Source: Tubiluchus corallicola (lineage: Eukaryota > Priapulida > Priapulimorpha > Priapulimorphida > Tubiluchidae). Taken from it: a DNA stretch of 64,000 bases. A program made the translations under genes and the position numbers. This document shows positions 8,562-64,000 of the stretch, piece after piece (positions within the stretch are counted from its first letter, which is position 1; each line of letters begins with the position of its first letter). The stretch covers positions 195,001 through 259,000 of the forward strand of contig JAQGDQ010000178.1 of the NCBI GenBank assembly GCA_030141605.1, in the 5' to 3' direction. The notes beneath the pieces are model-generated. The model searched no databases. It saw only the letters and a program-made list of their open reading frames with translations, and was not told where the DNA came from.

Positions 8562-10280
8562 TAAGCAAACTATTTTCTTGGAAAATTATACTCAACAGTG
8601 CCACGTCTTGTGTCATCAACAATTTCATGAATCTGTTACAAGAACTGTAATGTCAACTATTGGAGAGATTCTTAATGACCATGGCGACACATTAATAATT
8701 ATAGATTACGACTCGGACACCTTACCAAGTGACTTTTTATCCGGGAAGTTGCTGAAACAGCTGTCTTTAATATCATGTCACGGACTTTTTAGGATTGGAG
8801 CTTACGAAATAGCAGGATATGTGGAAAATCTAGAAATAAGAAAAAGCAGTAATTTAAACTTTATTGACCCACTGGCCTTTTATCATCAGACATACATGAT
8901 CTCTCTAACTTTGGAAGAACTTTACAAACTAACCTATCTTCAGTTGGATCTGAGACATGTTGTTCATATTAAAGAGATAAATATAAGAAGAGGTGACTTA
9001 AAAACCATGACAAACCCATGGATAGATGTATCTGTAGCAAGATCTGTTGCTGTCCGATTAGAGGGTAGGTCTGTTCATTTTATGAACGCGAACACTATAA
9101 CCTTCTATATACAACGAACCATGTAAGATTCTAACCCGAGAACAATAAAAACAGTGTAGCTTAAGGACTCTGTCTAGCAAATAGTGAGTTAACTTATTAA
9201 TTTGTAGAAAAAGATTCATAACATAAAATTCCGTCGTAAACACAAACAGTTGGAATTTTATCACACACGCACAATTATAATACATTCAATATAACAGGGC
9301 GAAACAATCATTCTTATTACTACGTGCAGTGATATCGTATGATATTACGTCATGTATGATCATTACAATAAAACAAAAATAATTGGTAATGCAGTTAGGT
9401 TTTCGAAGCAAAGGCTTAACCCTGACGATTCAGCTAGTCTACTTTCTGCTAGATGCTTTCTGAAATTCAGAAAATTTTCCCTAAGCTTACGATGGAGTTG
9501 GTGAGCCTTAATCGTCAAATTGCTAACATGCTATTTGCTAGACAATGCCCTTAAACTTGCTGTTTTTGCACTTTTCCACATAGTATTCATAATCTGATAT
9601 GGTTTCTGTGCGTGTACTGCTCACATGGTTTTCTTTTGTTACTGCGAACACGTTCCACTCGCATTAAAATTTTACGATTTACAAACAGTTACGACAGTTG
9701 GTATCACCAGACGATGAAAAACACGTTTCTTTCAGTTCTTGTTACCATGAGTTTGAAACTGTCATACATCTTTGCTGAATTCTATCATGACTTCTATCAT
9801 ATTTTGTAACTTTTTTATTTCGATGTCTAAGGCCCAATGATGACTCAAAACGAAATGTGGTCAACAGTAAATTCTTATGATTCCCAATATTTTTAATGCA
9901 GAAATTCCACTGCAATGTGACTGCCAGATAAGATGGTTAATGTTAATACAGTGAAGGGAGCTTCAATTCACATGCTGGAATCCACCATCACTACGAGGAC
10001 GCAATGTTGGCAGCTTGCGCCATTCTGATTTCTGTGAAAACTGCTCAGCAGGATTTGAACCACATTATTGTGAAAAGAGAAATGAATGTGTTTCTAGTCG
10101 CTGCAATCATAATGAAACATGTATCAACCAAAAGGATGGATTCTCCAACGAATAAAGTAATGGACGCTCTGGAAAACCGTTTGTGGTACAGAGAGTGAAG
10201 ATTCCAAAAAACCCAATTTTGTCGTATGTATGAAAGAATGTAATGTACCACAAGGTGGGAAATGCATATTAAGACGATTT
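8562..10280 (+). pseudogene. LRR / LRRCT / EGF-like gene remnant
   Basis: Exon 8562-9064 (503 nt, acceptor TTTGCAG, donor G|GTAGGT) encodes an N-terminal Cys pair (CHVLCHQQF) and leucine-rich-repeat-like segments (LLKQLSLISCHGLFRIG; VENLEIRKSSNLNFID). It joins in phase to an exon starting at 9902 that reads as an LRR C-terminal cap: IPLQCDCQIRWL, then FTCWNPPSLRGRNVGSL, then DFC. EGF-like spacing follows (CENCSAGFEPHYC, then NECVSSRCNHNETC). The cap has an in-frame TGA at 9952-9954 and the EGF frame stops at 10153. A third frame continues with cysteines (VVCMKECNVPQGGKC) to about 10280, where LINE sequence begins. Such proteins are normally extracellular. The two stops and the adjacent LINE suggest a dead gene, or one with sequence errors. 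Earlier exons and a signal peptide were not found. Confidence 0.55.
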
Positions 10281-10284
10281 GGAG

Positions 10285-12392
10285 ATTTCTGGGGGAGGGA
10301 GGTCATACGGCTGCTGGAGTGATACGGCTCATTGGTGTGATGCGGCTCAAGAACATCAAATTTCTAAATATAAATATTCAAAGTCTCGTCAAAAAACACA
10401 GGCTGCTCAAAGATACAATTCACGCCACCGAAAATCTAATTGTAGGCATAACAGAAACTTGGCTACATAAACAAATACTTAGCAACACTATAGAATTACC
10501 TAATCACACATTAATAAGAAGAGATAGATGTAAAAATAAGAAAGGTGGAGGGGTTGCGATGTATAGACGACACCCGAGACCACAAGAAAAGAAAGGCATC
10601 AGAACCAGCAAGATTGAATCTGTTTGATGCAGCATTGAGAACTATGTAATAGGAACCATATATAGACCACCCAATCTCAAACACAAAACATTTTTCAAAT
10701 ACTTCAGTGAAGAATAAGAACGCAGTGTTTTCGAAAGTTCTTATAATCTGCGATTTCAACCTTGATATTTTAGCTACAAACACACTGGCATACAAAACAT
10801 ATACAGAGCTCTTAAAACAGTATGAAAATATCCACAGTAATTGACCATTTCATTTCGAATAGTAACAATAATTTCGTAGCATATGATACTTTCCCGTGTG
10901 ATTATTCAGATCATCATTTCACAATATTAGTAGATAAAGTGACCCCACAGCATAACAATAACCAAAATTCAGTCTGGCATTTAATGAGAGACTACGCCCA
11001 ATACAAAAAACAAAAAAATGAACTGGACCTCCATATATATGACTGATAAAATAGATACACAAGTTAATATTCTGATTAATAATGTCGAATATTGCCTTAA
11101 TGTACATGCACCATAATTATAAAAACGTAAAACAAATCCCACAACAAAGCAAACTCAATAACGAAAGTACCTGGACAACACCTGAACTTGACAAACTAAG
11201 AATAGCGAAAAAAAGTACAATATATGGGAAAAGAACAAAATAAAAACCAATCATAACAATTATAAAAAAAGAGAAATCAGTTTAATAATCTTAATGAATG
11301 CTTGAAAAATGAACATATACAACAACAATGTAAAAACGCAACAAATAATAAAGAAAATGGAAAATTATTAACAATGTAATAAATAAATGCCATAACGAAC
11401 TAACGCGTATTGACGAAATGAAGATCAACAACACTGTTATTACAAAACCTAAAGATATTGCCAATGCGCTAAAAGCAATATTCTTGACTCATAGAAATTT
11501 TAAGGGAGTGGCTTCTCATGTTAGCAATAATATAATTAATAAATTAAAAAACAAATCGTCTATCACAGTATTCTCATCCAAAGGCGCCACAGTAGGAGAA
11601 ATTAACGACATATTAAATAACCTAAGTTCTAACAAAGGGAGTGGGCCATCAGATATTCCTATCAAAATTCTAAAAGATAGTGCATCTGTAATAGCCCCGC
11701 ATATGACTTACACTGCTAATCAGATGATTATGAGAGGCGAATTTCCAACTGTATGTAAAATGGCAAACGTGACACAAATCCATAAAAAAAGATTACAATT
11801 CCCAATCATTAAAGCACACAAAGAATATTTTATTCAGCTTTTTTATATTTAAATACATTAACAACATCAGCAAGCCATTCCAGAATAACAGAATTACCTT
11901 TTTTCCAAATCCTGTCGTTAATTCCAGAACAAGCAATCTAAAACAAATAAGGACAAATACCCACTACGGAACGAACTCTGTAATCAAACAAGCAATTCTA
12001 CTTTGGAATTCTCTAAGATTACATGTTAAACAAATCAAGTCCCTATCAGCATTTAAAACAAAATTAAAATCAATAATATTAACCAGATATGAAATACCAT
12101 CACACCAGTACGACAACATACACACTAATTCAGAATTCATATATCCACGGCCATATTAATTGATTCATAGACTTCTTTCATTTTTTTGTGCATAGTTGTA
12201 AATATGTTTGATTTTATTCGTCGTTACTTTCCATTACTGCACAGTAGTTTAGATTGTTCTAGCGCATTTGCCTTTAGCAGTGTAAGTTTTTATTAATTAA
12301 CACTGATTGATCATCTCTGTAAAGTCTTTATCAGTGATTATCAATGTATTTTCATGGCAAATAAAGATTATATATATATATATATATATAAC
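10285..12392 (+). mobile_element. Degraded LINE, internally deleted
   Basis: Pieces of an APE-type endonuclease appear in several frames: FLNINIQSLVKKH, IVGITETWLH, GGGVAMY, then VIGTIYRPPN near 10650, ICDFN (normally GDFN) near 10750 and YSDHHF near 10905. The reverse transcriptase start follows at 11418-11800, with SSNKGSGPSDIPIKILK and KMANVTQIHKK. The catalytic RT core is missing: the sequence jumps at about 11800 to the C-terminal end (AILLWNSL, then SLSAFKTKLK, near 12000-12080). An AT-rich 3' UTR ends in (TA)n at 12371-12391. This order matches CR1/L2/Jockey-type elements. It is inactive because of stops, frameshifts and the deletion. Confidence 0.8.
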
Positions 12393-30450: not shown

Positions 30451-32902
30451 CTTTCACAAACCCTGTGACATCTTGCTCTGACAAATTTGGATTTTTTCGC
30501 ACTACGTAAGCTCGGGGAAGATCATAATTAGGAGCACCTGGATCATCAACACCAGCAACAGCAACATCAGCGACGTCTGGATGTGACATCAACACAGTTT
30601 CAATCTCACCTGGAAAGACCTAAAACAGAACAAATGCAATCACAGACTCGTTTGGAGGGCTGCTTTTATTCTGAATCTTTAGAACTGTCGTTCTTTTATT
30701 TTTTTGTTCCTTCTTCCCTTTGTTGATCTATTTTACTTGCTTCCCTTCTTCCACTTTTTAGTCCTTCCCTAATTCACTCACTCTATCTGCTCAAATTTTA
30801 TTCTTTTCTATTTATACATTTCTTTACTCCACTTTTTCTTTCTTCTGTGCTCATTTTTGTGTCTTTTGTCTTTCCTTTTCGAACGTCACCTTTCATTCTC
30901 TCCATCTTCCTTTTCTTCCACCTTGTTTTTCATTGCCTGCTTGTTTTTTTTCTTACTTTCTTTTACTTACTTTCTTCCACATAGTTTTTCTTAGTTTTTG
31001 CTTGCTTAATACTTGTGCGTTGGAATATAATGCGAAACGGAGAATATTAAATTTCATATAAGGCCGTTGCTGCAACGCTACGATAGCCTCTGTTTGCAAC
31101 CCACAAAATAATCGACATATTAGTACTAGTTTGTACCATTCAGAAAAAATTGAAAACGACACTCAGAAAGAATGTAGGCACACCCACCATATTAGACATC
31201 AAGTCTTTGCGAATGTAAACTTTAATCATGTTTTTTATTCGTTCGATGATCAAAAGATTTCCCTGTTCGTCGAATGTACCGGCATCTCCAGTGCGAAAAA
31301 AACCATCGTCAGTAAAAGAGCGAGCAAATTCCTCCGGGTTGTTCAGATAACTGGTCATCACTGAGGGAGTTTTGATCAAAATTTCTCCCTGACATCCGGG
31401 ACCCAGTGTTTCACCGGAGTCTCTGTGAACAATCTGAAACAAGCCATAATGACAGACTTTTAAACCTGGCGGTTGCAAATCTTCCGTTGTGTGAGTTAAT
31501 GGAGATTCTTGTTGTATGAAAGTGAAAGGAACTCCGAAAAGCTCTGTTTTAACCTTAATGAAAATGAAAATGCTAAGATCGCGAGCATGCATGCGAGGCC
31601 ACATTTTCATTTTATCATCATGGCCTGTTTACCCTACATATTAGGACTTTGATATTTTTTATTTGATTTTTGATATTTATTATATGTTAGAATTATTTTT
31701 TAAAAAGTGGGGGTGTTTTCCCTGAGCAAAGCCAACTAGAATAAGAAAAGGGAAACGGGAATGATATTTTCAAAAAAGTTAGACCGGATAATGAGCGCCA
31801 AATTTAATGTGTTTGCGTCTGCTTTTGCCTTGAGTAAGCTTTTGTAAAGTAGAACTGCGAGCTTCAGTGTCCAAACTATAAAAATACCTTCGCTTTGATA
31901 TTAGGAAGTAGAACAGTCTTGCCATCGCTGCTACAACAGCCAATTGGTTCTGCAGATACAGTTCCTAGTTCTGTCAGGCCGTACACTGAATGAAAAATAC
32001 ATTTTGTGAATTTTACTCAGTACTTCTAAAATCAGGATCTATTATACTCATAATGAACGTCTGAACTTATGAACAAATTAACAAGTTTAGCAAATCTGCA
32101 ATGCTGTGAATTGTATGTGAGACTTTTGGGATTTATTTGCTTTGACTTATAGACATGCAATTTTTAATAGCGCATCTGTGTATCACTATCATGTGTTATA
32201 ATTCCATACGTGTACAGCTAAAATACTTGAAATCGAAGCCTTCCTTTATCGCTACTGCATAATGTGAACATTAGATTGAACTTGGGTAAATATTTTTTTA
32301 ATTTTTTTGATATTACTTAGAATTATCCACTTATATTCGGCTTATGAAGAAGAAGAAATTAACTTATAAGCTACGCACAACATGGATAGGCCTTAATTAA
32401 AACATAAACAAACAATAAATGCTGATAAATGAATTAAATGCTTGTCAAATGAAGTGTACAAACGATACTGATGATGTTGTTGATGATGGTGACGGCGATA
32501 GTGATAGCAATGGTGGTGATGATGACACTGATAATCAATTGGTGCTAATGATATCAAGTGATAGCGAGTGAGATTTTCATCCTAGCGAGTAATGGTAATG
32601 TTTTACAAACTAAACGAAATCTTTCGTTTTCTCTTTGTCTTACATTGTCTTATATGAATGTGTGGGAGCTTTTCAGTAAACTCAGAGATGACAGATGGGT
32701 GCAGAGCAGAACCTCCACAGTAAATCACTGTTATGGAAGACAACTTCTGAGCACCATGTTTCTTGATGCTTTGAAGAAGTGCAATTAAAAGCGCTGGCGT
32801 ACAGACGAGCTTTCCACCTGCAAGAATCGACTGCAACGTCAGCTATGGTGTAATTATAGCGCCGATTTTGCTGTAATATGCACTTGTAGAAGAGAGAGCT
32901 AG

Positions 32903-52397: not shown

Positions 52398-52521
52398 AAG
52401 TTAAAGTAAAGTTAAAGTTAAAGCTAAGTTAAAGTTGAAGTTGAAGTTGAAGTTGAAGTTGAAGTTGAAGTTGAAGTTGAAGTTAAAGTTAAAGTTAAAG
52501 TTAAAGTTAAAGTTAAAGTTA
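52398..52521. repeat. Hexanucleotide repeat (AAGTTA/AAGTTG)n
   Basis: About 19 tandem 6-bp units with an inner AAGTTG block. It ends exactly where sequence matching the end of the coding exon at 62733 begins. Confidence 0.93.
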
Positions 52522-53370
52522 CGATTATAGATGAGACGGTTGTGTAATTTCATAAGGTTCATAATATTTTTTCTACTGCACAATGCATTGGGTTTCTCGA
52601 ATCCTAAACAGGGTAAAGCCACATTATGACAGAGTGCCGTAAGTATTGGTTTTGCAGCTGTATACTGAAATGTAAGTTAAGTCGTCAAACTTAAAAGCAA
52701 ACAATCAAAGAAGGCAACTTCAAAGAACACAGAGTTATTGAAATTCACACTTGCACAGTCACTGTCACTGTGCTTGCATCGTTTGTTTGCTTCAAAAGTT
52801 TTCATACCCAATCTTAAACTGTAGGTCAAAAAAATTTACTTTTTAAAATATTGAAAGCGAATATACTACTTTTTAAAAAATGACTTACGTGAAAGTATTA
52901 TTAACACACAAATACAATTTCACGTTCGCGCAACTAGTTCTTCGCGGTTACTTGCATTCGCCATTGACTAGTTGACGGGCACTAGCGCCTGCATTTCGGA
53001 AACCCATTGCATAAAAAACATGTGCTGTACCTCTCAGTTCAGGTGTGCTAGCTTGTGACGAACTACATACGTTCGACAGTTCATGCATGAGCACAGCGGT
53101 AAATTTGAAATTTAAATTTTTATCTTGAAACTTGCCTAGTTTTAGTACAACACACTGAATATTTTACAGTAGCACAGTACTTCCAATTTTCACTTTCGCA
53201 AACATATGCAACCCACTCGTGGAATATTTTTTCTGTTGAAAATTATGTTAGTTTATCATCGATAGTTGGGCGCGCCCATCGTTAATTAAGTTTTTAATTT
53301 ATAATTTAATTATCAGAAACGCTTTTGCAGTATTAATTGTGTTAAAATGTGTACTTTTTATCGTACTTGA
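52519..53370. repeat. Segmental duplicate of the intron at 62.7-63.6 kb
   Basis: Starts with TACGATTATAG, the last bases of a coding exon like that ending at 62733 (TACAATTATAG), but the donor GT has become AT. The next 270 bases match 62734-63000 almost perfectly and the rest at roughly 90 percent by eye. It carries a 14-codon minus-strand frame at 52920-52964 (MAN.SN.E.LV.RT) that is also open at 63112-63156. Confidence 0.9.
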
Positions 53371-53375
53371 AAATG

Positions 53376-53473
53376 TAGTAGTATATATACTATCTATATA
53401 TACTATACTTTATATATACTAGCTTATACCATCTTAACTATGCCATCTTTCAGGTAGGTGCTGCTACTAAACT
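53376..53473 (+). promoter_or_regulatory. Promoter and 5' UTR of the 1112-aa secreted protein
   Basis: Several TATA-like stretches (tatatatac, tatatatact) lie at 53380-53420, followed by about 50 bases to the ATG at 53474. The exact start is not resolved. Confidence 0.4.
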
Positions 53474-56400
53474 ATGTGGACCTCTTTGCTGTTACCATTG
53501 CTACTAGCCATCTCGTCACTGACAACAACTAGCGGCACCACATTGTCATCAATGTTGTCAGCGTTTCCATCAAGACAAGCATCAGCATACACCTTCAACC
53601 AACCACAACAAGAACAGCAACTACAGCGTGAATACAGTTATGCAGTTTCACAACCACTGATTTACGTTGGAGGTAATAAGTGTATAAATATACTGAAGCT
53701 TTAAAGCACAAGAAAACTCTCTTCGTAAATAAAGCTCAAAAATTTGTTTTGAAATTTTACATCGCTTAAATGCTGTCTTATTGCACACAGAGCTTGGCTG
53801 TATAAAACCTAAAACATTAAACTCCGCGATGACAGCTAGGCGCAGCTATTTTAATGGAAAGTCATTTGAAACATGTTTTACAGTGAGTCAGTGGTGCTCA
53901 CTGGGTAGTGAGTCAGTGGTGCTCACTGGGTAGTGAGGCAGTGGTGCTCACTGGATAGCGAGGCAGTGGTGCTCACTGGATAGTGAGGCAGTGGTGCTCA
54001 CTGGATAGCGAGGTAGTGGTGCTCACTGGATAGTGAGGCAGTGGTGCTCACTGGATAGCGAGGCAGTGGTGCTCACTGGATAGCGAGTCAGTGGTGCTCA
54101 CTGGATAGCGAGTCAGTGGCGCTCACTGGATAGTGAGGCAGTGGTGCTCACTGGATAGCGAGGCAGTGGTACTCACTGGATAGTGAGTCAGTGGTGCTCA
54201 CTGGATAGCGAGGCAGTGGTGCTCACTGGATAGTGAGTCAGTGGTACTCACTGGATAGTGAGTCAGTGGTGCTCACTGGATAGTGAGTCAGTGGTGCTCA
54301 CTGGATAGTGAGGCAGAGGCATTTTACCAGGTGAAGCAAACATTTTAAATTATTAAGAATTTTGTTTTCCAATTATATAACTCAATTCAAGCAAATAAAC
54401 GTAGTTTTGAGTAATATAATTATGCTGGAAACGTTTTTTTCGGGATGTATTTGAAAATTATTATTTCTCCTGCCAAATATCATAAGCTAAAATACTCTTA
54501 CCTTCTCTTTAAAGCTTAGTTCATTAATTTGTCATTCAAATCAGAGATGTCACCGCTTTAAAAGGTAAATCATATTATGTTGGGATATGTACATGTGGTT
54601 TTAATCTTAATCAGTGTGTGTCGTTACGTAGGTTAGGCATTGTAGAGCTATCTTCTGGTGGACATGTGTGCTGTGTTTGAAAATGCTAATTTAAGAAAGT
54701 GCCTCAGTAAATGTTAACTTGCAGTGGAACATTTCAATATAAACTAGATGGTTTTCGAACAAAGATTTTGTGACCCTCAATTGATCTCATCTTCAACTCC
54801 TTTTTCAAAATGGACACTACCCATTAGTTCGAACCTGCCTTATAAAAATGCAAATTCAGCAAAATGAATGTAAATTCAGAAATGAAATCTAGCTACACAT
54901 GAGAACCAGCACAAAAGAGCGCTTGCTTCTTTTTTTGACAGCAATAATAACACACGTTCAATGTTCTTTTCTAGATGGCGCAGATGTACGTGGTGAAGAC
55001 ACATACTTCACTACCACATCTTACGGTCCTATTGCATCTGGGAGCTTGCAAGGTCAAGGCTCAAAATCACAGCGGCAGTCTTACACAAGATCAGGGCAAA
55101 GCAAAGGGAAATTGTACAGTACAGATGTAGCAGCAGCAACACAGCTAGCGAAGAAGTCGAAAGCATACGAGTATAAATACAGGTATGAGACACAGTGAAA
55201 CAAAAGGGTGTAAAACGATTGAAGGAAAACTATTTTAAGCAACGAAAGAACTCATAGACTAGCTTGGACGTTGAAAATTACATCAGTTATGGCACTGAAT
55301 CTGTAACGCACACTATCACTGACTGTCATAAAAATATACTTTCAAGGGTGTGTAGTCCAAAAGGAGGTTTGAAACAACAAACAACAAACTCTTCACACTT
55401 CGCCTCTTCTTATTTTGCCTTACCACTTTCAGTTCTCTTATATATATATATATATATACATAAATTATTATTTCTCCAGTATTTTAGCCACAATGAACTC
55501 TTTAAACGCATAACTTTGTTAATACTGTTATTATCTTATTAAAACTAAGTGGTTTTCTTGTTTCAGGAATGGTCACACCTACTATCAGCCAAGACTTCTT
55601 TACTCATATGATGTAGAGCAACCTATATGGGGTTATGCGGATGCAGCCAGTACTCCATATGGTGCCGACACCAAAACTGCACCACAAAGACAAATTGCTG
55701 GTAGCAATACCAGAGGTCTTGCTGAAATATCACCTTTGTTTGGTGATGCTGCAAGCATTATCATCCGAGAAACACATAAAGACAATCAAGTTCAACATAC
55801 TGGACAAAACATAAACTACCTCAGTGAACGTCCAGCACAATATGACGCAAAGTATTTTGGCAAAGGGACATTCCCACAAATGACAAGGATAAATGCTCAA
55901 CAGCTGCCAATTGTTGAAGCAGTTTCATTGCCGCAAACTAGCAGAAGCAATCTTTCATGGGAGAATCAGCCAGTAATTGAGTACGGTAGCATTAACCTTC
56001 GAAATAACAGAAAGAGTGAAACTGCACAGAGAATATTGTCTTTGGCTGATGCCGAGCCACCAGCCAAAATTAATGTACCAAACACAATCCTAACGGTACC
56101 TCAGCAGCAATCTGCTTTACCAATCCTACTTAATAGTGAAGAAAATCAATTGGAGGCATTGGGTCCATCATTAGTCAAGTTTGTTCGACCTGAAATTTTT
56201 GGAACAATGCAACCAAGGCACACATCTCAGTTAGTTACTGTCCGTGGCAACGTGAACGTAAATGTTGGTGTTAGCACAAGCCCACACACAAGCAGATTAT
56301 ATTTACCAGAAAAACAATATGCTGCTAATACTAAAACAGTTGAATATCCACATAGAGACATAAATTCAGTTTTTCCTTTATCTGCTGGAGTTGTAGGAGA

Positions 56401-58498
56401 CAGTAGAATACAGAAGCTTCCACAACTGCCAAAAACCGAATTTAAAAAGCTAATTATCCCTAGCAGTACAATCCAGCCACAAAGGTTTGATAGTAGCAAA
56501 AACAGCCTTGGAGAATTTGCAAAAAGTTTGTTTCATAGCGGCATTGCAAGTAAGGACATAACTGGTGCATTTATCGACATAATTAGTGGAAAAGTGACAG
56601 ATGAAGAAAAGCGGCTCAATATTCAACGTCCAAGCCAAACTACGAATTCTTTGGGATCTTCAAATAGTAGAATAAACAACATTTTTGGTGCAGTGGACGA
56701 AAAGCTATTGGGGTCACCAAGAACTAGAGCTACAGCCCAAACAGTCGAGCCAGAATTTGAAATACAAGACAGAAGGCTAAGAATTTATAGGATTGATGAC
56801 CAAAATACCACCCATATATTCCAAACTATAGAAGATGATTTTCAGCATAGCAACAGAGATGATCTCCAAATAGAAACAGATAAAGCCCTTGAAGATGTAC
56901 TTCTCCAGTTGGAAATAACGGACAGAAATTCAAATCCCAAACAGACAAAAGCAAATGATGATGACGGCTCCAGACAAATAGGAATCCATTTGCCTAATTC
57001 TCCACAGGAAGTGCCAAGATCAACTCCATTTATAAAAATCCGATTTTCATCTGTTCCAGTTCAAGACCAACAAAACGAAAGTACAACAGACACTGAACGA
57101 ATGCAACCATCCAGCAAGGATCCATTAAGACCTACTGGTAACAGACAGGAGCAGCAGCCACAAATTATGCCAAAATCACAAGAAAGAGAATCACTCAGTT
57201 CATTCAGTGAGAAAAGTGTAAGTTCCAATAATTACAATCTTCACAATGGTGAAATTGATGAATCTCAGGAACGAAATGAGGAAGTAATTACAGATCACGA
57301 GAGATCAGTGCCGTACGCAAATAATATAACATACAGACCATCAATTATAGAAAATAGTCAAAATCTACACTTCCCAACCAGCTACATTCAACCATCAGTA
57401 AACAGAAAGCAATTTAGTACAACTTCTGCTATAGCTTCTTCCAATTATAATCCACAGGGTATTCCCAATAACAAAAATTTCTTCAATGTGCAAGTTGATA
57501 TAGGACATGCACAGGATGGCACTGCACAACAGCAAACAACAACTGACACCCAAAGAAACCTGCAGAGTCTAACAAACAATAACTCTGTAAGACGAACGAA
57601 TGGTGGTCTCGGATCATCAAATTCATTTCTTGATCCAAGTAAGTTAACAAATGGTTTTAACACAGAGAAATTGCAGAGAAATATTGCTAACCTAGGCATC
57701 AGCAATACTGAACTCAATAGTCTGGGGTTTAGGAAGAACTTTTTATCTGGTTTGAGAAACAGTGCTCCAAATGCAAGACAAGTTGTAACAACAAATGCAG
57801 AGGTAGACTTTGGCACACCTTTTATTGCAAGTTCAGCAACACCACCAAGTGTAAAAAACATTGAGGACACAAAAAGAGACATTTTTCACACCATTACTGC
57901 ACCTGGCCAAAATGTCGTTGACAGAAATGGACAACTGATTGTTGGAATAGTGAAAAGAGGTTTTGATAATGGAAATCTTAACCCACAAGCATCAACACTT
58001 TTTGGCAACAAGATTCAGTTAAGACAGAATATTCTGAATAGAGAAACGTTGCCAAACTACAATCTCATCGACAGAAGACAAGCTTCTGAGCCAAACACTG
58101 AATTTCTGGAATCAGCCCAGGCTGTTAACTTAGGAAATGGCATTGTTCGAAATTTCTACACTGTGAGAAACCCAATCAGGCAATCTAATCAGATCAGCAT
58201 ACGGGATACGTTTGATTCCTGGCCAAATATCCAACGAGTAGGTAACAGTCAAGGAGGTCACTACTCAAGCAGTCCTGGTCGCACATTAAACAACCCTTTC
58301 ACAGCTTCAGGTATAGGCAGACTGCCAAATGGCATTAGTGGTAGTTCCAATAACAATAGGGCCGGCAATTTTGGCAACACAATAGTAAGCCACGCATTTA
58401 GTGGGCTGCAAAACTCAGGTGGTATTGGTAGAACATTCAGTAGCAAATACCAAAATATTCCAGTAAGAAATCAAAACAGGTATCACGGTTGGTCTTGA
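53474..58498 (+). CDS. Large secreted Q/N/S-rich protein, 1112 aa (paralogue 1)
   Basis: Three exons join in phase: 53474-53672, 54975-55182 and 55567-58498. The ATG opens a signal peptide (MWTSLLLPLLLAISSL). Exon 2 and the start of exon 3 encode a module of about 90 residues shared with the gene at 62327: DTYFTTTSYGPIASG, SYTRSGQSKGKLYS, YEYKYR, then NGHTYYQPRLLYSYD and QPIWG. After it comes about 920 residues of low-complexity sequence rich in Gln, Asn, Ser, Thr and Arg with almost no Cys, which suggests an extended extracellular structural or matrix protein. The 2.9-kb last exon is open throughout, so the gene is probably functional. Family not recognised; a role in shell, cuticle, tube or glue is inference only. 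Confidence 0.88.
53884..54318. repeat. 25-bp minisatellite in intron 1 of paralogue 1
   Basis: About 17 copies of TAGTGAGGCAGTGGTGCTCA plus CTGGA. Each unit contains AGTGAG and its reverse complement CTCACT and could fold into a small hairpin. Confidence 0.95.
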
Positions 58499-58906
58499 AT
58501 TTCTAACTAGTTGGATAATCTTGATACAATTATTGAGTAAGAAACTAAAAATACTCAAGATTTAGATGATTGTACTTAAATATCATTAAGTGAGGAGGAG
58601 ACAGGCTCACCAAAAAGGCTTATCTTCCATAACACAATGCACAGTAGTCTGCACTGCTGTCACTTGCCAGCAAATTGTCTTATAAAACAAGACAGGAGGG
58701 AGAAACATTAAAAAAATACTTTAGAAACTCAAAATTGTTTAACATTTTTTGTGCTTAATGTAAAAAATGATTGGCAGCAAGTAAATAATTATGTAAATAT
58801 TGTTAATTGTTATAGTTGATAAGATGTTAATAATAATATGAATTCTGTTAGCAATGGTTGCTTTAAATTGGTGTGACGTTTTTTTTATATTTGAAAACCA
58901 AATGTC

Positions 58907-58928
58907 AATAAATGATGTTAGTAATAAA
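58907..58928 (+). terminator. Poly(A) signals of paralogue 1
   Basis: Two AATAAA at 58907-58912 and 58923-58928, about 410 bases after the TGA. Confidence 0.7.
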
Positions 58929-60054
58929 TACACTTATGTCACGTGATTTTGTTTTTATTTACGTATGAAATGCACAAACAAACATATGTAACACACTCTA
59001 TGCACAAACAGAGTGTATATTAACATTGACAAAAGACATGTAAAGGTTAAGGGTGCTTGATAATTAACTAACCCTAACATCTGATCAAGTTTTGATTGAA
59101 CTTACTAAGGGTGAATTTAAGGCCTAAATTTCAGTTTAGCTTTCCTTCTTGCGAAAATATAATAATAAATAAATAAACAATAGATAAATATTATGTATGA
59201 AAAGCAGGTGAAGAAAATAAAGAAAACGCAAAGAGGGAGATGTAGAAAAAAAGAGAGGGAGAGAGAGAGAGAGGGAGAAGAAATAGACAAAAAGAAAAAC
59301 GACAGAAAGAGAAAACGTGGATAATAGGATCAGGATCAAGCAAGGACAAAGAGAATAAGGTACAAGAAACAGTAAGTAAATAAAACAATAAAACCACTGA
59401 AAATGTCGATCGTGCAATAATTTTGAACCGCTCTGTATGTGTAGGGGCCGCACTACAAAAGCTGTGAATTCAGTAGCTTGGGCTGAGAAACAACTCAATC
59501 ATCTTTGCGTGGAGAAAAATAACTGAAGCAAACTTACATTGAGATAACAACTCACAAAACATCTTACTAATGTAAACTATATTTTTATCATATAATAACA
59601 TTTTTAATAAATAAATTAATCTAAAATAGAGACAAGTTTCATAATTTCTAGCAAACCCATTTTGTAAATGTAAATTTTAATTTTTGTAAATTGTAACTAA
59701 TTAGTATTGTAACGTTGATTAATTTTAACGCGGTGCACGATACCAATCACTTTGATTAACACGTGTCAAAGAAAACTACAATCAGACTGACTACTCGTGG
59801 AGAAAGTGACCAGCAGTGGCGTGATTAATTTCACTTTCTAGGATACTAATCAGTTTAGTGAGAAGACAACGGAAGCTGACAGACAAGTGGGTCAATACAG
59901 TCACAAGACAATGCGAATTTAGCGTCTGTCTGATCAGATCTGAAGGTCAAGTACGACCTCGGGTGCACGTTGATCATAATTGCATGCTGACCAGACCGAG
60001 GACATGTTTGTATAAACAAATGGGGAGTGACAAAGGTACAGGGGAGGGAAAACG

Positions 60055-60313
<259 letters not shown>

Positions 60314-60699
60314 ATCATTACGTTACGTCATAAATATTCGAAACGTCCATATCAATGAGAGAAAACTTTTTTGCCACCACTTAATGGATGTTAACAAGGT
60401 ATTTTCATAAAAACAGCTTTAAAGTAACAACCTGACCTTTAATGAGCAAGACATTGCAGACTGCAGAGATGACCGCCCCAATCACACCCAAGTGGATTTA
60501 CGATACGATTTTGTAATATATTAAGTGCGTACAGCTTAAAAGACAAGAAAAGGGGTACCTGAAGTAGGTTTCAGAAAAATTGCCTTAAGAAATTATATCA
60601 CTTTACAGCAATTTTATGTGTATATCATACTCGCATTGAAAGGAAGTTTTGTTTGTTTTCATTTTAAATGTTACGTGACGTCACTACGCAAAAGTAAAT

Positions 60700-61045
60700 C
60701 AGACGGAGAAAAGGCAATGTTAAATTATGTCCCAAAAAATCTCCATGCAAATCTATATTACTTAGCATTTCGCTTACCTGTTTGAAAGACTTATGTAACA
60801 AGAAAAGAAAAGTTTTAATTATTTAAAAAAAATTTACCAATTCACCAATGGTAAAATGGCGCTGACTCACCTTTCAGGGTGCACCACCCAGTAACCAAAA
60901 ATGCATTTTTAATCTTATTCACAAGATACAGTAATTTAAAATTTTAGTCGCTTAGTGAAGTGGGCACTACGAATGCTCTGATTAATTTTTCAAACTTTAC
61001 ACAATGTTATCTAAAGTTGTTTCAAATGCCCTGTCGTCGGGAGTT
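60700..61045. repeat. Paralogous segment matching 49.3-50.76 kb
   Basis: Shares GTCCCAAAAA, one unit of the 37-bp minisatellite (TCGCTTACCTGTTTGAAAGA), ACGAATGCTCTGATTA and GGGAGTTTAAAT in the same order as at 49383-50760, where the single unit has grown to about 29. Confidence 0.8.
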
Positions 61046-61062
61046 TAAATTTACTACTGTTT

Positions 61063-61068
61063 TTGCTG

Positions 61069-61133
<65 letters not shown>

Positions 61134-61167
61134 ACTGCTACTGCTACTGCTACTGCTACTGCTACTG

Positions 61168-61234
<67 letters not shown>

Positions 61235-61247
61235 CACGACTACTATA
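61063..61247. repeat. Compound (CTG)n(CTACTG)n(CTA)n microsatellite
   Basis: CTG triplets, then alternating CTA/CTG, then CTA triplets. The poly-Ala, -Thr, -Leu and -Val frames are artefacts. Confidence 0.97.
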
Positions 61248-62018
61248 ATTTAGACAATTAACAATGAGAAAAAAGACTACCTCCTTACAATAAGAAAAAG
61301 ACTGCCTCCTTGCTTAACTCATAAAATAAGGAGTCTAACTAATCCAGGGTGGTGGAAATCTATTGCTAACTTGAGGAGGTAGCATAATAAAACGCCCTAA
61401 GCTAAACACAACAGGTGACACATTTTCTTATCTCATTCATAACAAAACTAAAAAAATATTCACGCTTTCTAGTGCAAGATACTGGGCATTTCAGCTAAAT
61501 CACACACTAGATATTTCCCAAAGTTGTGCTGCTAGATGAAGACGACCTTCACTCAGCATTCTCGGTCAGCAACAATTTGACCGCAAAATCGTTACTTAAG
61601 TTCATGAATAACCAAACGTAGGCAGATGCCTCAGGTACGCTAGAAGTAGTGAAAGTAGGATAAATGGAACAATCATCAACAGTTGTAATTAACTCCTAAC
61701 TACCCTCACGCAAGTGGACACAAATAGGGCAAAACCACGCAATGTCGTTACATCACTAAACTCCAGCTCAAATGGAACCTATTGCCCGCAGATTTACGAA
61801 ACAGGGTGCGTTCTTGGAAAATAGAATTGAAAAGATGCATACCAAAATTCGAACAGCTGCCTGACAAAAGCAGTAGAACACCATGCTTCTGTTTCTCCTA
61901 ATGGACATGCCACTCCAAAAGAGGCACTAGTACACGACAGAGGAAATCAATTGACAGCCTGTAATTACTGCGGTTCGCTGGAAATTTTTTTCTGGGTCAT
62001 GAGGCAATGGATGACATT

Positions 62019-62113
62019 TATAAAGCAGTGACAGTGACAGTGATGGACGCCACAATAGGTTGAGTATTACACAGTGAAAGTAGCAGGAACAGATTTGACT
62101 ACAATACTGATTT
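62019..62113 (+). promoter_or_regulatory. TATA promoter and 5' non-coding exon of paralogue 2
   Basis: TATAAA at 62019-62024, then a short exon ending at a donor GATTT|GTAAGTT (exon end 62113). The next acceptor (ATATTGCAG, 62319-62321) opens the exon holding the ATG. Confidence 0.5.
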
Positions 62114-62326
62114 GTAAGTTTACTTAGTTAACTTACTGCACACTTACATTACGTTTTATATGTTATAGTATTTTAACTTAGTACTGACTTTACACTAGTT
62201 GCATTTGTCTCAAATGGCTGGTTAGCGATACCGGTGAAATCACGACTTCTATGTTGTGATTCAGTGAAGCACATTCAGTGTACAACACACTTAAACAAGT
62301 TTTTATTATTTAATATTGCAGGCAGG

Positions 62327-64000
62327 ATGAATTCTCACCTGGTAATTCTACTATCTGTCCTTGGTGCAGCGTACAGTACATATGACAGCAGTGGGACAGA
62401 TGGGTACTTAAATGCCCCATCAAACTATGGAACAGCTCAACAGGTGGTAGTGCCTGCACAACAAACTATTTCTGGAAGACAGGTAGACTTGCAAGGTACA
62501 CAAGTAGTTGTGCCTGACAAAGTAGTTGGTGCTGCAAGAACCGTATCACCAGAGTATTTTACTACCACCCGGATAGGGCCAGTAGCCAGTGGAGGATTGA
62601 CGGGATCTGGAACAAGGAGCAGCAGCTTGTCTTACAACAGACAAGGTTCAGCCCAGGGAAGCTTGTATAGTAGGGATCAAGCTGACGCATCTGAAACAGC
62701 ACAGAAAACCAGAGGCTACAGCTACAATTATAGGTGAGACGGTTGTGTAATTTCATAAGGTTCATAATATTTTTTCTACTGCACAATGCATTGGGTTTCT
62801 CGAATCCTAAACAGGGTAAAGCCACATTATGACAGAGTGCCGTAAGTATTGGTTTTGCAGCTGTATACTGAAATGTAAGTTAAGTCGTCAAACTTAAAAG
62901 CAAACAATCAAAGAAAGCAACTTCAAAGAACACAGAGTTATTGAAATTCACACTTGCACAGTCACTGTCACTGTGCTTGCATCGTTTGTTTGCTTCAAGT
63001 GTTTTCATAACTGTAGGTCAAAACAATCCACTCTTTAAAATTTTGAAACGAAATATACTATTTTTAAAAAAATGACTTATGTGAAAGAATTATTGACACA
63101 CAAATACAATTTCACGTTCGCGGGACTAGTTTTTCGCTGTTACTTTCATTCGCCATTTGCTAGTTGACGGGCACTAGCGAATGCATTTCGGAAACCCACT
63201 GCACAAAAACATGTGCTGTACCTCTCAGTTCAGGTGTGTTAGTTTCTGACGAACTACACACGTTCGACAGCTAATGCGTGAGCACAGCGGTAAATTTGAA
63301 ATTTCAATTTTTATCTTAAAACTTACCCAGTTTTAGTACAACACACTCAGTATCCTACAGTAGCACGTAACTTCAATTTTCTCTTTCACAAACACGTGCA
63401 ACACGCTCGTGCAGTACTTTTGCTGTTGAAAATTATGTTAGTGTGTCATCAATAGTTAGGCATGCCCGCCATTAATTAAGATTTCAATCTATAATTTAAT
63501 TATCAGAAACGCTTTTGCAGTATTAATTGTGTTAAAACGAATACTTTTCATCGGACTTGAAAATGGGGTGGTAGTATATGAAAAATCATCCTGTTTTCCT
63601 TTAATGGAGCGTTTTCTTGCAGAGAAGGCCATCAGTATGCACAGCCGAGGACACTCTACAACTACGACCTCCAGGAGCCAGTCTGGGGAGTAGCAACCAA
63701 AGCCGAGGTTTATAGAGGAGATGGTGGGGATGCTGGCCTCACAGTTGACAATTTGGGCAGCAGCAGGAGCACTATTGGCGGCGGTTTGGGAATTGGAGGA
63801 GGTTTTGGCCGTGTCTCAGCTTTGAGTGGAACATTACGTACAGGAACCTCTAGTGCCTTGACTACTGGAAAAGGACTGTCTCTCGGTAGCAAAATCGGTA
63901 CTGGAATAGATCAGCTGAGAAGTGGAACAACCGGACTTCACACTGGAACAGTTCGCGTAACTGGAAGAACAGGCAGCGCTGGATACGGTAGCGGCATCCG
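62327..64000 (+). CDS. Secreted protein with the same module (paralogue 2, partial)
   Basis: Exon 62327-62733 begins with a signal peptide (MNSHLVILLSVLGAAYS) and encodes the shared module (PEYFTTTRIGPVASG, SYNRQGSAQGSLYS, YSYNYR). It joins in phase 2 to an exon from 63623 (EGHQYAQPRTLYNYD, EPVWG) that runs off the window. The part after the module is rich in Gly, Ser and Thr (STIGGGLGIGGGFG; RTGTSSALTTGKGL), unlike the Q/N/S-rich tail of paralogue 1. The module intron is at the identical codon and phase in both genes. An extracellular structural role is inferred from the signal and composition. Confidence 0.88.
62725..63570. repeat. Intron segment duplicated at 52.5-53.4 kb
   Basis: Nearly all of the intron of paralogue 2. 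The first 270 bases are almost identical to 52527-52800; similarity ends near 63580. Confidence 0.9.

What the first reader, a model, noticed from the sequence alone, without database searches (positions are those of the whole stretch)
53474..64000. Two secreted paralogues share an unrecognised module
Genes at 53474 and 62327 both have a signal peptide and a module of about 90 residues with the pattern YFTTTxxGPxASGxLxGxG, then SYxRxGxxxGxLYSxDxA, then YxYxYR, GHxYxQPRxLYxYD and PxWG. A phase-2 intron splits it at the same codon. After the module the proteins diverge completely: one Q/N/S-rich (about 920 aa), the other Gly/Ser/Thr-rich. I know no named domain with this pattern. This looks like a family in which a conserved head is attached to fast-changing structural tails.
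Basis: partly seen in the sequence, partly recalled or inferred. Interest (0 to 1): 0.75.

Follow-up and report, generated by a model that had tools for sequence, protein, structure and literature searches.

The report
Large new family of secreted matrix-like proteins
Two neighbouring genes belong to a family of about 36 in one animal genome that share an undescribed, strongly conserved 89-residue module set among fast-changing repetitive stretches, most likely building blocks of a secreted matrix such as a cuticle, tube, shell or egg case.

Summary
Genes A (53474-58498) and B (62327 to a stop at 64254, outside the window) share a module (67 of 162 identical, E 4e-29) split by a phase-2 intron in the same codon. 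Three queries find the module at the same 36 distinct places in the window's own genome. All 36 were rebuilt, and 36 of 36 have that intron in that codon. The module has no cysteine and about 13 aromatics per copy; dN/dS is below 1 in 33 of 33 usable pairs (of 630). In five close pairs the module is 88-94% identical while N-flanks are 30-74% identical with long gaps. Correction: it is not a 'head'. Repetitive sequence may precede it, follow it or both. No described domain matched in Pfam, NCBIfam or PDB sequences. Best reading, inferred: an anchoring or cross-linking module of a secreted structural matrix, working like insect R&R cuticle proteins but unrelated in sequence. Animal, tissue and fold are unknown; the fold attempt was unusable.

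The parts
53474..53672 (+). Gene A exon 1: start codon, signal-like peptide, Q/Y-rich stretch; ends in a phase-1 donor
   Evidence: acceptor-like TTTCAG 20 bases before the ATG, score 12, under the threshold of 13 used
54975..55182 (+). Gene A exon 2: first 62 and two thirds residues of the module; ends in a phase-2 donor
55567..58498 (+). Gene A exon 3: rest of the module (to 55633), then a 955-residue S/N/Q-rich tail and stop
   Evidence: AATAAA at 58907 and 58923
54995..55633 (+). Module of gene A (split by the intron 55183-55566)
62327..62733 (+). Gene B exon with start codon, signal-like peptide, V/Q-rich spacer and first part of the module; ends in a phase-2 donor
   Evidence: acceptor-like TTGCAG five bases before the ATG (score 10, under the threshold of 13 used); TATAAA at 62019
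63623..64000 (+). Gene B last exon: rest of the module (to 63689) and G/T/S-rich tail; continues past the window to a stop at 64254-64256
62546..63689 (+). Module of gene B (split by the intron 62734-63622)

Best explanation
A and B are members of a multigene family of secreted structural proteins. Each chain enters the secretory path and leaves the cell. The 89-residue, cysteine-free, tyrosine-rich module is the common part by which all members join one extracellular material, either by binding its polysaccharide (probably chitin) through aromatic side chains or by tyrosine-based cross-links made by secreted tyrosinase. The low-complexity flanks, which differ from gene to gene (Gly/Tyr, Gly/Ser, Gln/Tyr, Asn/Ser), set the mechanical properties and the length of each chain. 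Shown: family, shared intron, selection on the module, signal-like starts (by eye), variable flanks, tyrosinase-family and chitin-synthase-like matches in the same genome. Inferred: extracellular structural use, chitin or tyrosine chemistry, tissue.
For: 36 distinct places found by three queries, 36 rebuilt. Signal-like start in the module's own exon in 29 of 36 by my reading. Ten columns invariant in 36. Purifying selection: dN/dS 0.06-0.24 in the five closest pairs, below 1 in 33 of 33 usable pairs of 630. In five close pairs the module is 88-94% identical while N-flanks are 30-74% identical with 54-213 gapped places. Gly/Tyr, Gly/Ser and Gln repeats of the kind seen in structural proteins. 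No cysteine in 3204 module residues, 13.1 aromatics per module. Partly clustered: by my count, 16 of 37 places lie on six contigs with two or more (C1408 four, C2047 three, C2157 three, C466, C485 and C1796 two each); 21 are alone on their contig. Tyrosinase-family matches on four contigs (10 matches, controls 0 of 14) and chitin-synthase-like matches on four contigs (13 matches, three neighbouring loci on C1030).
Against: No expression, proteomic or tissue evidence and no transcript. No signal-peptide predictor was run. The fold is unknown (pTM 0.15 on two sequences). Some flanks are conserved: L036/L041 tails 100% over 49 residues, L013/L017 N-flanks 97% (probably alleles), and the short 11-residue tails of L016/L018, L012/L018 and L014/L018 are 82-91% identical. 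Tyrosinase and chitin-synthase-like genes are common in animals and do not single out this family; the PF03142 search also rang in four bacterial controls. The chitin idea rests on analogy.
Confidence: 0.55

Rival explanations
1. The module is a propeptide or sorting domain: it keeps aggregation-prone repetitive chains soluble in the secretory granule and is cut off on release, much as terminal domains control silk assembly (silk comparison from general knowledge).
For: In several members the module begins within 60 residues of the start, signal included (L010, L021, L029, L031, L036, L039-L041). It is the only part common to all 36 chains.
Against: In L013, L014, L016 and L018 the module lies about 12 residues from the C-terminus, and in L025 it is central. 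No dibasic pair is conserved at the edges of the 89 aligned columns (by eye; flanks beyond were not aligned).
Confidence: 0.17
2. The family makes a reproductive or embryonic covering (egg capsule, cocoon or egg envelope) rather than a body covering; the mechanism is the same but the fast change is driven by reproduction.
For: Many copies with fast-changing Gly/Tyr- and Gln-rich flanks, which also suit tanned egg cases (general knowledge).
Against: Nothing in the sequence points to reproductive use.
Confidence: 0.15
3. A secreted defence or mucus family: the module is a recognition domain and the flanks are mucin-like spacers.
For: Multigene family, partly clustered, with rapid flank change.
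Against: Selection on the module is purifying in 33 of 33 usable pairs. No cysteines, unlike most small secreted recognition domains (general knowledge). Flanks are mostly Gly/Gln/Tyr/Ser-rich, not the Pro/Thr/Ser pattern of mucins.
Confidence: 0.08
4. Artefact: chance motif, pseudogenes or exons carried by a transposon.
For: Module exons are spread over many contigs and a dispersed repeat sits in gene B's intron.
Against: Open frames, a donor at the same base of the module in all 23 genes printed and in A, purifying selection, polyadenylation signals after A. The splice scripts took the nearest in-phase GT and AG, so the presence of these letters alone is partly by construction.
Confidence: 0.02

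Closest known systems
Insect cuticular proteins with the Rebers-Riddiford consensus (CPR family)
   Same: Large secreted family, many genes in tandem arrays, one conserved domain under purifying selection, flanks that diversify in composition; 156 genes and a domain of about 64 residues in Anopheles (abstract of PMC2259329).
   Different: No sequence match: Pfam, which includes the R&R family by my recollection, gave no such hit in the 35 modules scanned. A recalled R&R query has no match in this genome (no positive control). Chitin binding untested here.
KRMP (lysine-rich matrix proteins) of pearl oysters
   Same: Several genes, conserved region plus a glycine/tyrosine-rich C-terminal region linked with quinone tanning (passages of PMC3191542).
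   Different: KRMP's conserved basic region is lysine-rich with six cysteines; this module has none in 36 copies.
Shematrins of pearl oysters
   Same: Glycine-rich shell-matrix protein family (passages of PMC3191542), as the glycine-led tails of L037, L039, L040, L042, L043.
   Different: To my knowledge shematrins lack a separate non-repetitive module of this kind; not tested against shematrin sequences.
Repetitive low-complexity-domain proteins of molluscan mantle secretomes
   Same: Secreted proteins with changing repeats, in novel configurations or joined to older domains (sections 8 and 9 of PMC4897951).
   Different: That is a descriptive class, not a family; here one module and one intron unite 36 genes. 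The source animal is not shown to be a mollusc.

Membership tests
Insect CPR (R&R) cuticular proteins | R&R consensus domain (Pfam Chitin_bind_4; name recalled) | tested here: not met
   24 modules and 11 further modules against Pfam: no such family at E up to 1; the 36th (L037) was not scanned; its first 63 residues equal those of L039, which was.
Insect CPR (R&R) cuticular proteins | Conserved domain amid low-complexity flanks, many genes, tandem arrays | tested here: met
   clustering only in part: 16 of 37 places on six contigs (my count).
Insect CPR (R&R) cuticular proteins | Chitin binding | not testable with these tools
   Needs recombinant protein.
KRMP | Lysine-rich basic region with six cysteines | tested here: not met
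   0 cysteines in 3204 module residues; definition from passages.
KRMP / shematrin | Glycine- or Gly/Tyr-rich tail | tested here: inconclusive
   Gly then Tyr lead the tail in L037, L039, L040, L042 and L043, not in A, B, L025 and many others.
Any described domain | Match above curated cut-off in Pfam-A or NCBIfam, or a PDB sequence relative | tested here: not met
   Pfam: 35 modules, best E 0.0034 (arterivirus peptidase S32, 5 of 24 members) and 0.0096 (Plasmo_rep, 1 of 11), judged chance; gene A last exon 0 families at 0.1. NCBIfam: 24 modules, best 0.11. PDB: single module best 0.16, profile of 24 best 0.027, one PKD domain. UniProt and InterPro were not available.

The most novel reading that the evidence does not exclude
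A previously unnamed protein domain, expanded to about 36 genes in one animal lineage (probably spiralian), that plays the part the R&R domain plays in arthropods: the common anchor of a whole extracellular skeleton's proteins, evolved independently.
Probability: 0.3. Interest if true: 0.75.

Novelty: new variant of a known kind. Interest (0 to 1): 0.52.

Why it matters
Structural proteins of non-arthropod hard or tanned materials are hard to compare because their repeats leave no homology. Here one strongly conserved module ties together Gly-, Gln-, Asn/Ser- and Tyr-rich chains that would otherwise look unrelated. It gives a handle for finding the material's whole protein set, for tracing it between species, and for testing whether chitin anchoring of structural proteins arose more than once.

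Tried and rejected
Described-domain search: Pfam, NCBIfam and PDB gave only chance-level matches. Relatives in prokaryote genomes and viral contigs: none with one family member as query (L018's module). No eukaryote collection other than the own genome was on hand, so how widely the module occurs is unknown. Motif strings in the open-licence paper library: one 5-mer and six strings of 6-8 letters, 0 papers. Topic searches listed no paper that I recognised as this family; for these I saw the listings, and beyond them passages of PMC4094399, PMC3191542 and PMC2932725, abstract and sections 8 and 9 of PMC4897951 and the abstract of PMC2259329.

Naming the animal failed. Lottia gigantea was my guess from size and GC and is dropped for want of support: a recalled haemocyanin fragment and PF14830 gave nothing, PF16915 nothing; the controls of both family searches were empty as well, so these answers do not show absence. 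A recalled COI query and a recalled R&R query found nothing, also without positive control. A neuropeptide query hit tandem repeats; the four loci read were minisatellites. An assembly-size search listed two plant papers only. Hox-type homeodomains (best 97%; flanks, one Lox2/Lox4-like by recollection) point to a bilaterian, probably a spiralian.

Structure: AlphaFold2 on the 63-residue exon part with two rows gave pLDDT 56 and pTM 0.15; no fold search was made on it.

Full report
Observation. The two genes and their shared module are in the sequence as described. Splicing gene A at 53673-54974 (phase 1) and 55183-55566 (phase 2) gives 1112 residues; gene B, spliced at 62734-63622 (phase 2), gives 346 residues with its stop at 64254-64256, just outside the window. 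The two phase-2 introns interrupt the same arginine codon. A and B align over 162 residues with 67 identities, E 4e-29; the module pair scores 264 against at most 60 in 2000 shuffles. AATAAA follows A at 58907 and 58923 and a TATAAA stands at 62019 before B. In 9 of 33 tested starts of the family a strong acceptor-like site lies within 60 bases upstream, against 4% of 2000 random places, which suggests an intron in the 5' untranslated region of some members; A (score 12) and B (score 10, five bases before the ATG) are under the threshold of 13 and not among the nine. No transcript was available for any gene.

Family. The window lies in contig C2157 of a 343.5 Mb assembly. Three module queries against that genome return the same 36 distinct first-part exons, once 13 contigs that carry one and the same gene are counted as one; one search has 49 such rows before that step. 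The three of the 13 copies that I fetched (C2, C457, C2271) are 100% identical over 1.8-2.0 kb. One search adds one very divergent place, C1399 (E 2.8e-4), whose second exon was not found, making 37; one search adds two places at E 0.007 (C448, C593:1363) that I did not look into. The tool scores only its best candidates, so these counts are lower bounds. I rebuilt all 36 (A, B and 34 others). The scripts took the in-phase GT and AG nearest the expected codon; 36 of 36 have the phase-2 intron in the same codon, in the 23 genes with the donor at the same base counted from the module's start. 35 of 36 have no length change in 89 residues; L037 lost a few residues. Some pairs may be alleles: C1382 and C807 are 95% identical over 3.7 kb, C1302 and C195 88-94% in three pieces.

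Selection. Ten of 89 columns are invariant in 36 modules: G11, P12, G20, G22, R32, G34, D44, Y58, G65, P71. Pairwise identity in the 63-residue first part is 27% at least, median 49%. Of 630 pairs, 33 have a synonymous distance between 0.05 and 1.5, and all 33 have dN/dS below 1 (median 0.39; the five closest 0.06-0.24). The module contains no cysteine in 3204 residues and on average 13.1 aromatic residues.

Flanks. I compared nine pairs of my choice. In five (L016/L018, L011/L012, L011/L019, L012/L018, L014/L018) modules are 88-94% identical while the aligned part of the N-flanks is 30-74% identical with 54-213 gapped places. L010/L021 (module 80%, N-flank 41%) and L009/L024 (66%, 41%) go the same way. 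Against the pattern: L013/L017 (N-flank 97%, probably alleles), L036/L041 (tails 100% over 49 residues), and the short 11-residue tails of L016/L018, L012/L018 and L014/L018 (82-91%). Examples of flanks: L025 has a Gln-rich N-flank (479 residues with the signal) and 958 residues after the module with QQQGYGPST repeats; L014 has a long ARFGGGKQPLDTVD repeat before it; L019, L033, L042 and L043 have Gly- or Gly/Tyr-rich tails. The module is therefore an internal cassette, not a head: by the script's rule 11 of 36 have at least 100 residues between signal and module, 9 of 36 a tail of at least 100, 15 neither and 3 no visible start. Starts of L014, L023, L026 and L032 are uncertain. By my reading, 29 of 36 have a signal-like start in the module's own exon; A has it in a separate exon. 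B and L024 (C1209) also share a second conserved stretch at the very C-terminus, CSFYIG..C..(M/L)xLIAxGYGVRRI..IW.

Relationships. A tree of 35 modules (L037 left out) puts B in a group of six with C1209, C1738, two C1408 genes and one C1796 gene (97/92), and A in an unresolved fork; 17 of 32 inner branches are open and the bootstrap had not settled. By my count, 16 of 37 places lie on six contigs with two or more members and 21 are alone on their contig; many contigs are short.

What it is not. No match worth the name in Pfam (35 modules), NCBIfam (24 modules) or PDB sequences, no relative in the prokaryote or viral collections for one member as query, no motif string in the open-licence paper library. 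UniProt and other animal genomes could not be searched, so 'undescribed' means in these libraries only.

The animal. Hox-type homeodomains up to 97% identical to a recalled Antennapedia-type query, three on one contig, and one with a Lox2/Lox4-like form (assignment from recollection) indicate a bilaterian, probably a spiralian. A recalled R&R query rang nowhere, which speaks against an arthropod, and haemocyanin searches were empty, which lends no support to a mollusc; none of these negatives had a positive control. Tyrosinase-family matches lie on four contigs (10 matches, controls 0 of 14) and chitin-synthase-like matches on four contigs (13 matches); the latter family also rang in four bacterial controls, so it is weakly specific.

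How it probably works. Secreted chains with a common cysteine-free aromatic module and dissimilar repetitive flanks follow the plan of insect R&R cuticle proteins (abstract of PMC2259329) and, less closely, of pearl-oyster KRMPs (passages of PMC3191542). I infer that the module anchors each chain in one extracellular material, by binding a polysaccharide or by tyrosine cross-links, and that the flanks set the mechanics. Tyrosines have been proposed for both roles in insect cuticle (passages of PMC2932725). It works like an R&R protein; it is not one. Tissue, chemistry and fold remain open; the one fold made (63 residues, two rows) was unusable.

Noticed in passing
window 52514-53386: An 89% copy of gene B's exon end and intron (62717-63579) lies just upstream of gene A, probably a relic of duplication in this cluster.
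   Followed up: partly
window 63010-63600 (gene B intron); also L010, L012, L017, L050: A dispersed repeat of about 580 bases, 66-81% alike in four other fetched loci, sits in gene B's intron.
   Followed up: partly
C457, C628, C2254 at 308703 and ten other contigs: One family gene appears on 13 contigs, three of them at the same coordinate; the three copies fetched (C2, C457, C2271) are 100% identical over 1.8-2.0 kb, so the assembly seems to hold redundant contigs.
   Followed up: partly
window, about 53880-54320: Minisatellite of about 25 bases (gtgaggcagtggtgctcactggata) in gene A's first intron (by eye).
   Followed up: no
window 10244-12159, + strand: Broken frames that look like a non-LTR retroelement by eye; endonuclease-like match below the cut-off (16.1 bits against 24.5).
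   Followed up: no
window 31140-31628, - strand: Possible exon of an AMP-binding (acyl-CoA-synthetase-like) enzyme, below the curated cut-off (17.4 bits against 29.9).
   Followed up: no
L009 2171-2254 and L024 4313-4402: Second conserved stretch with two cysteines at the C-terminus of gene B and its C1209 relative; found in no other fetched locus.
   Followed up: partly
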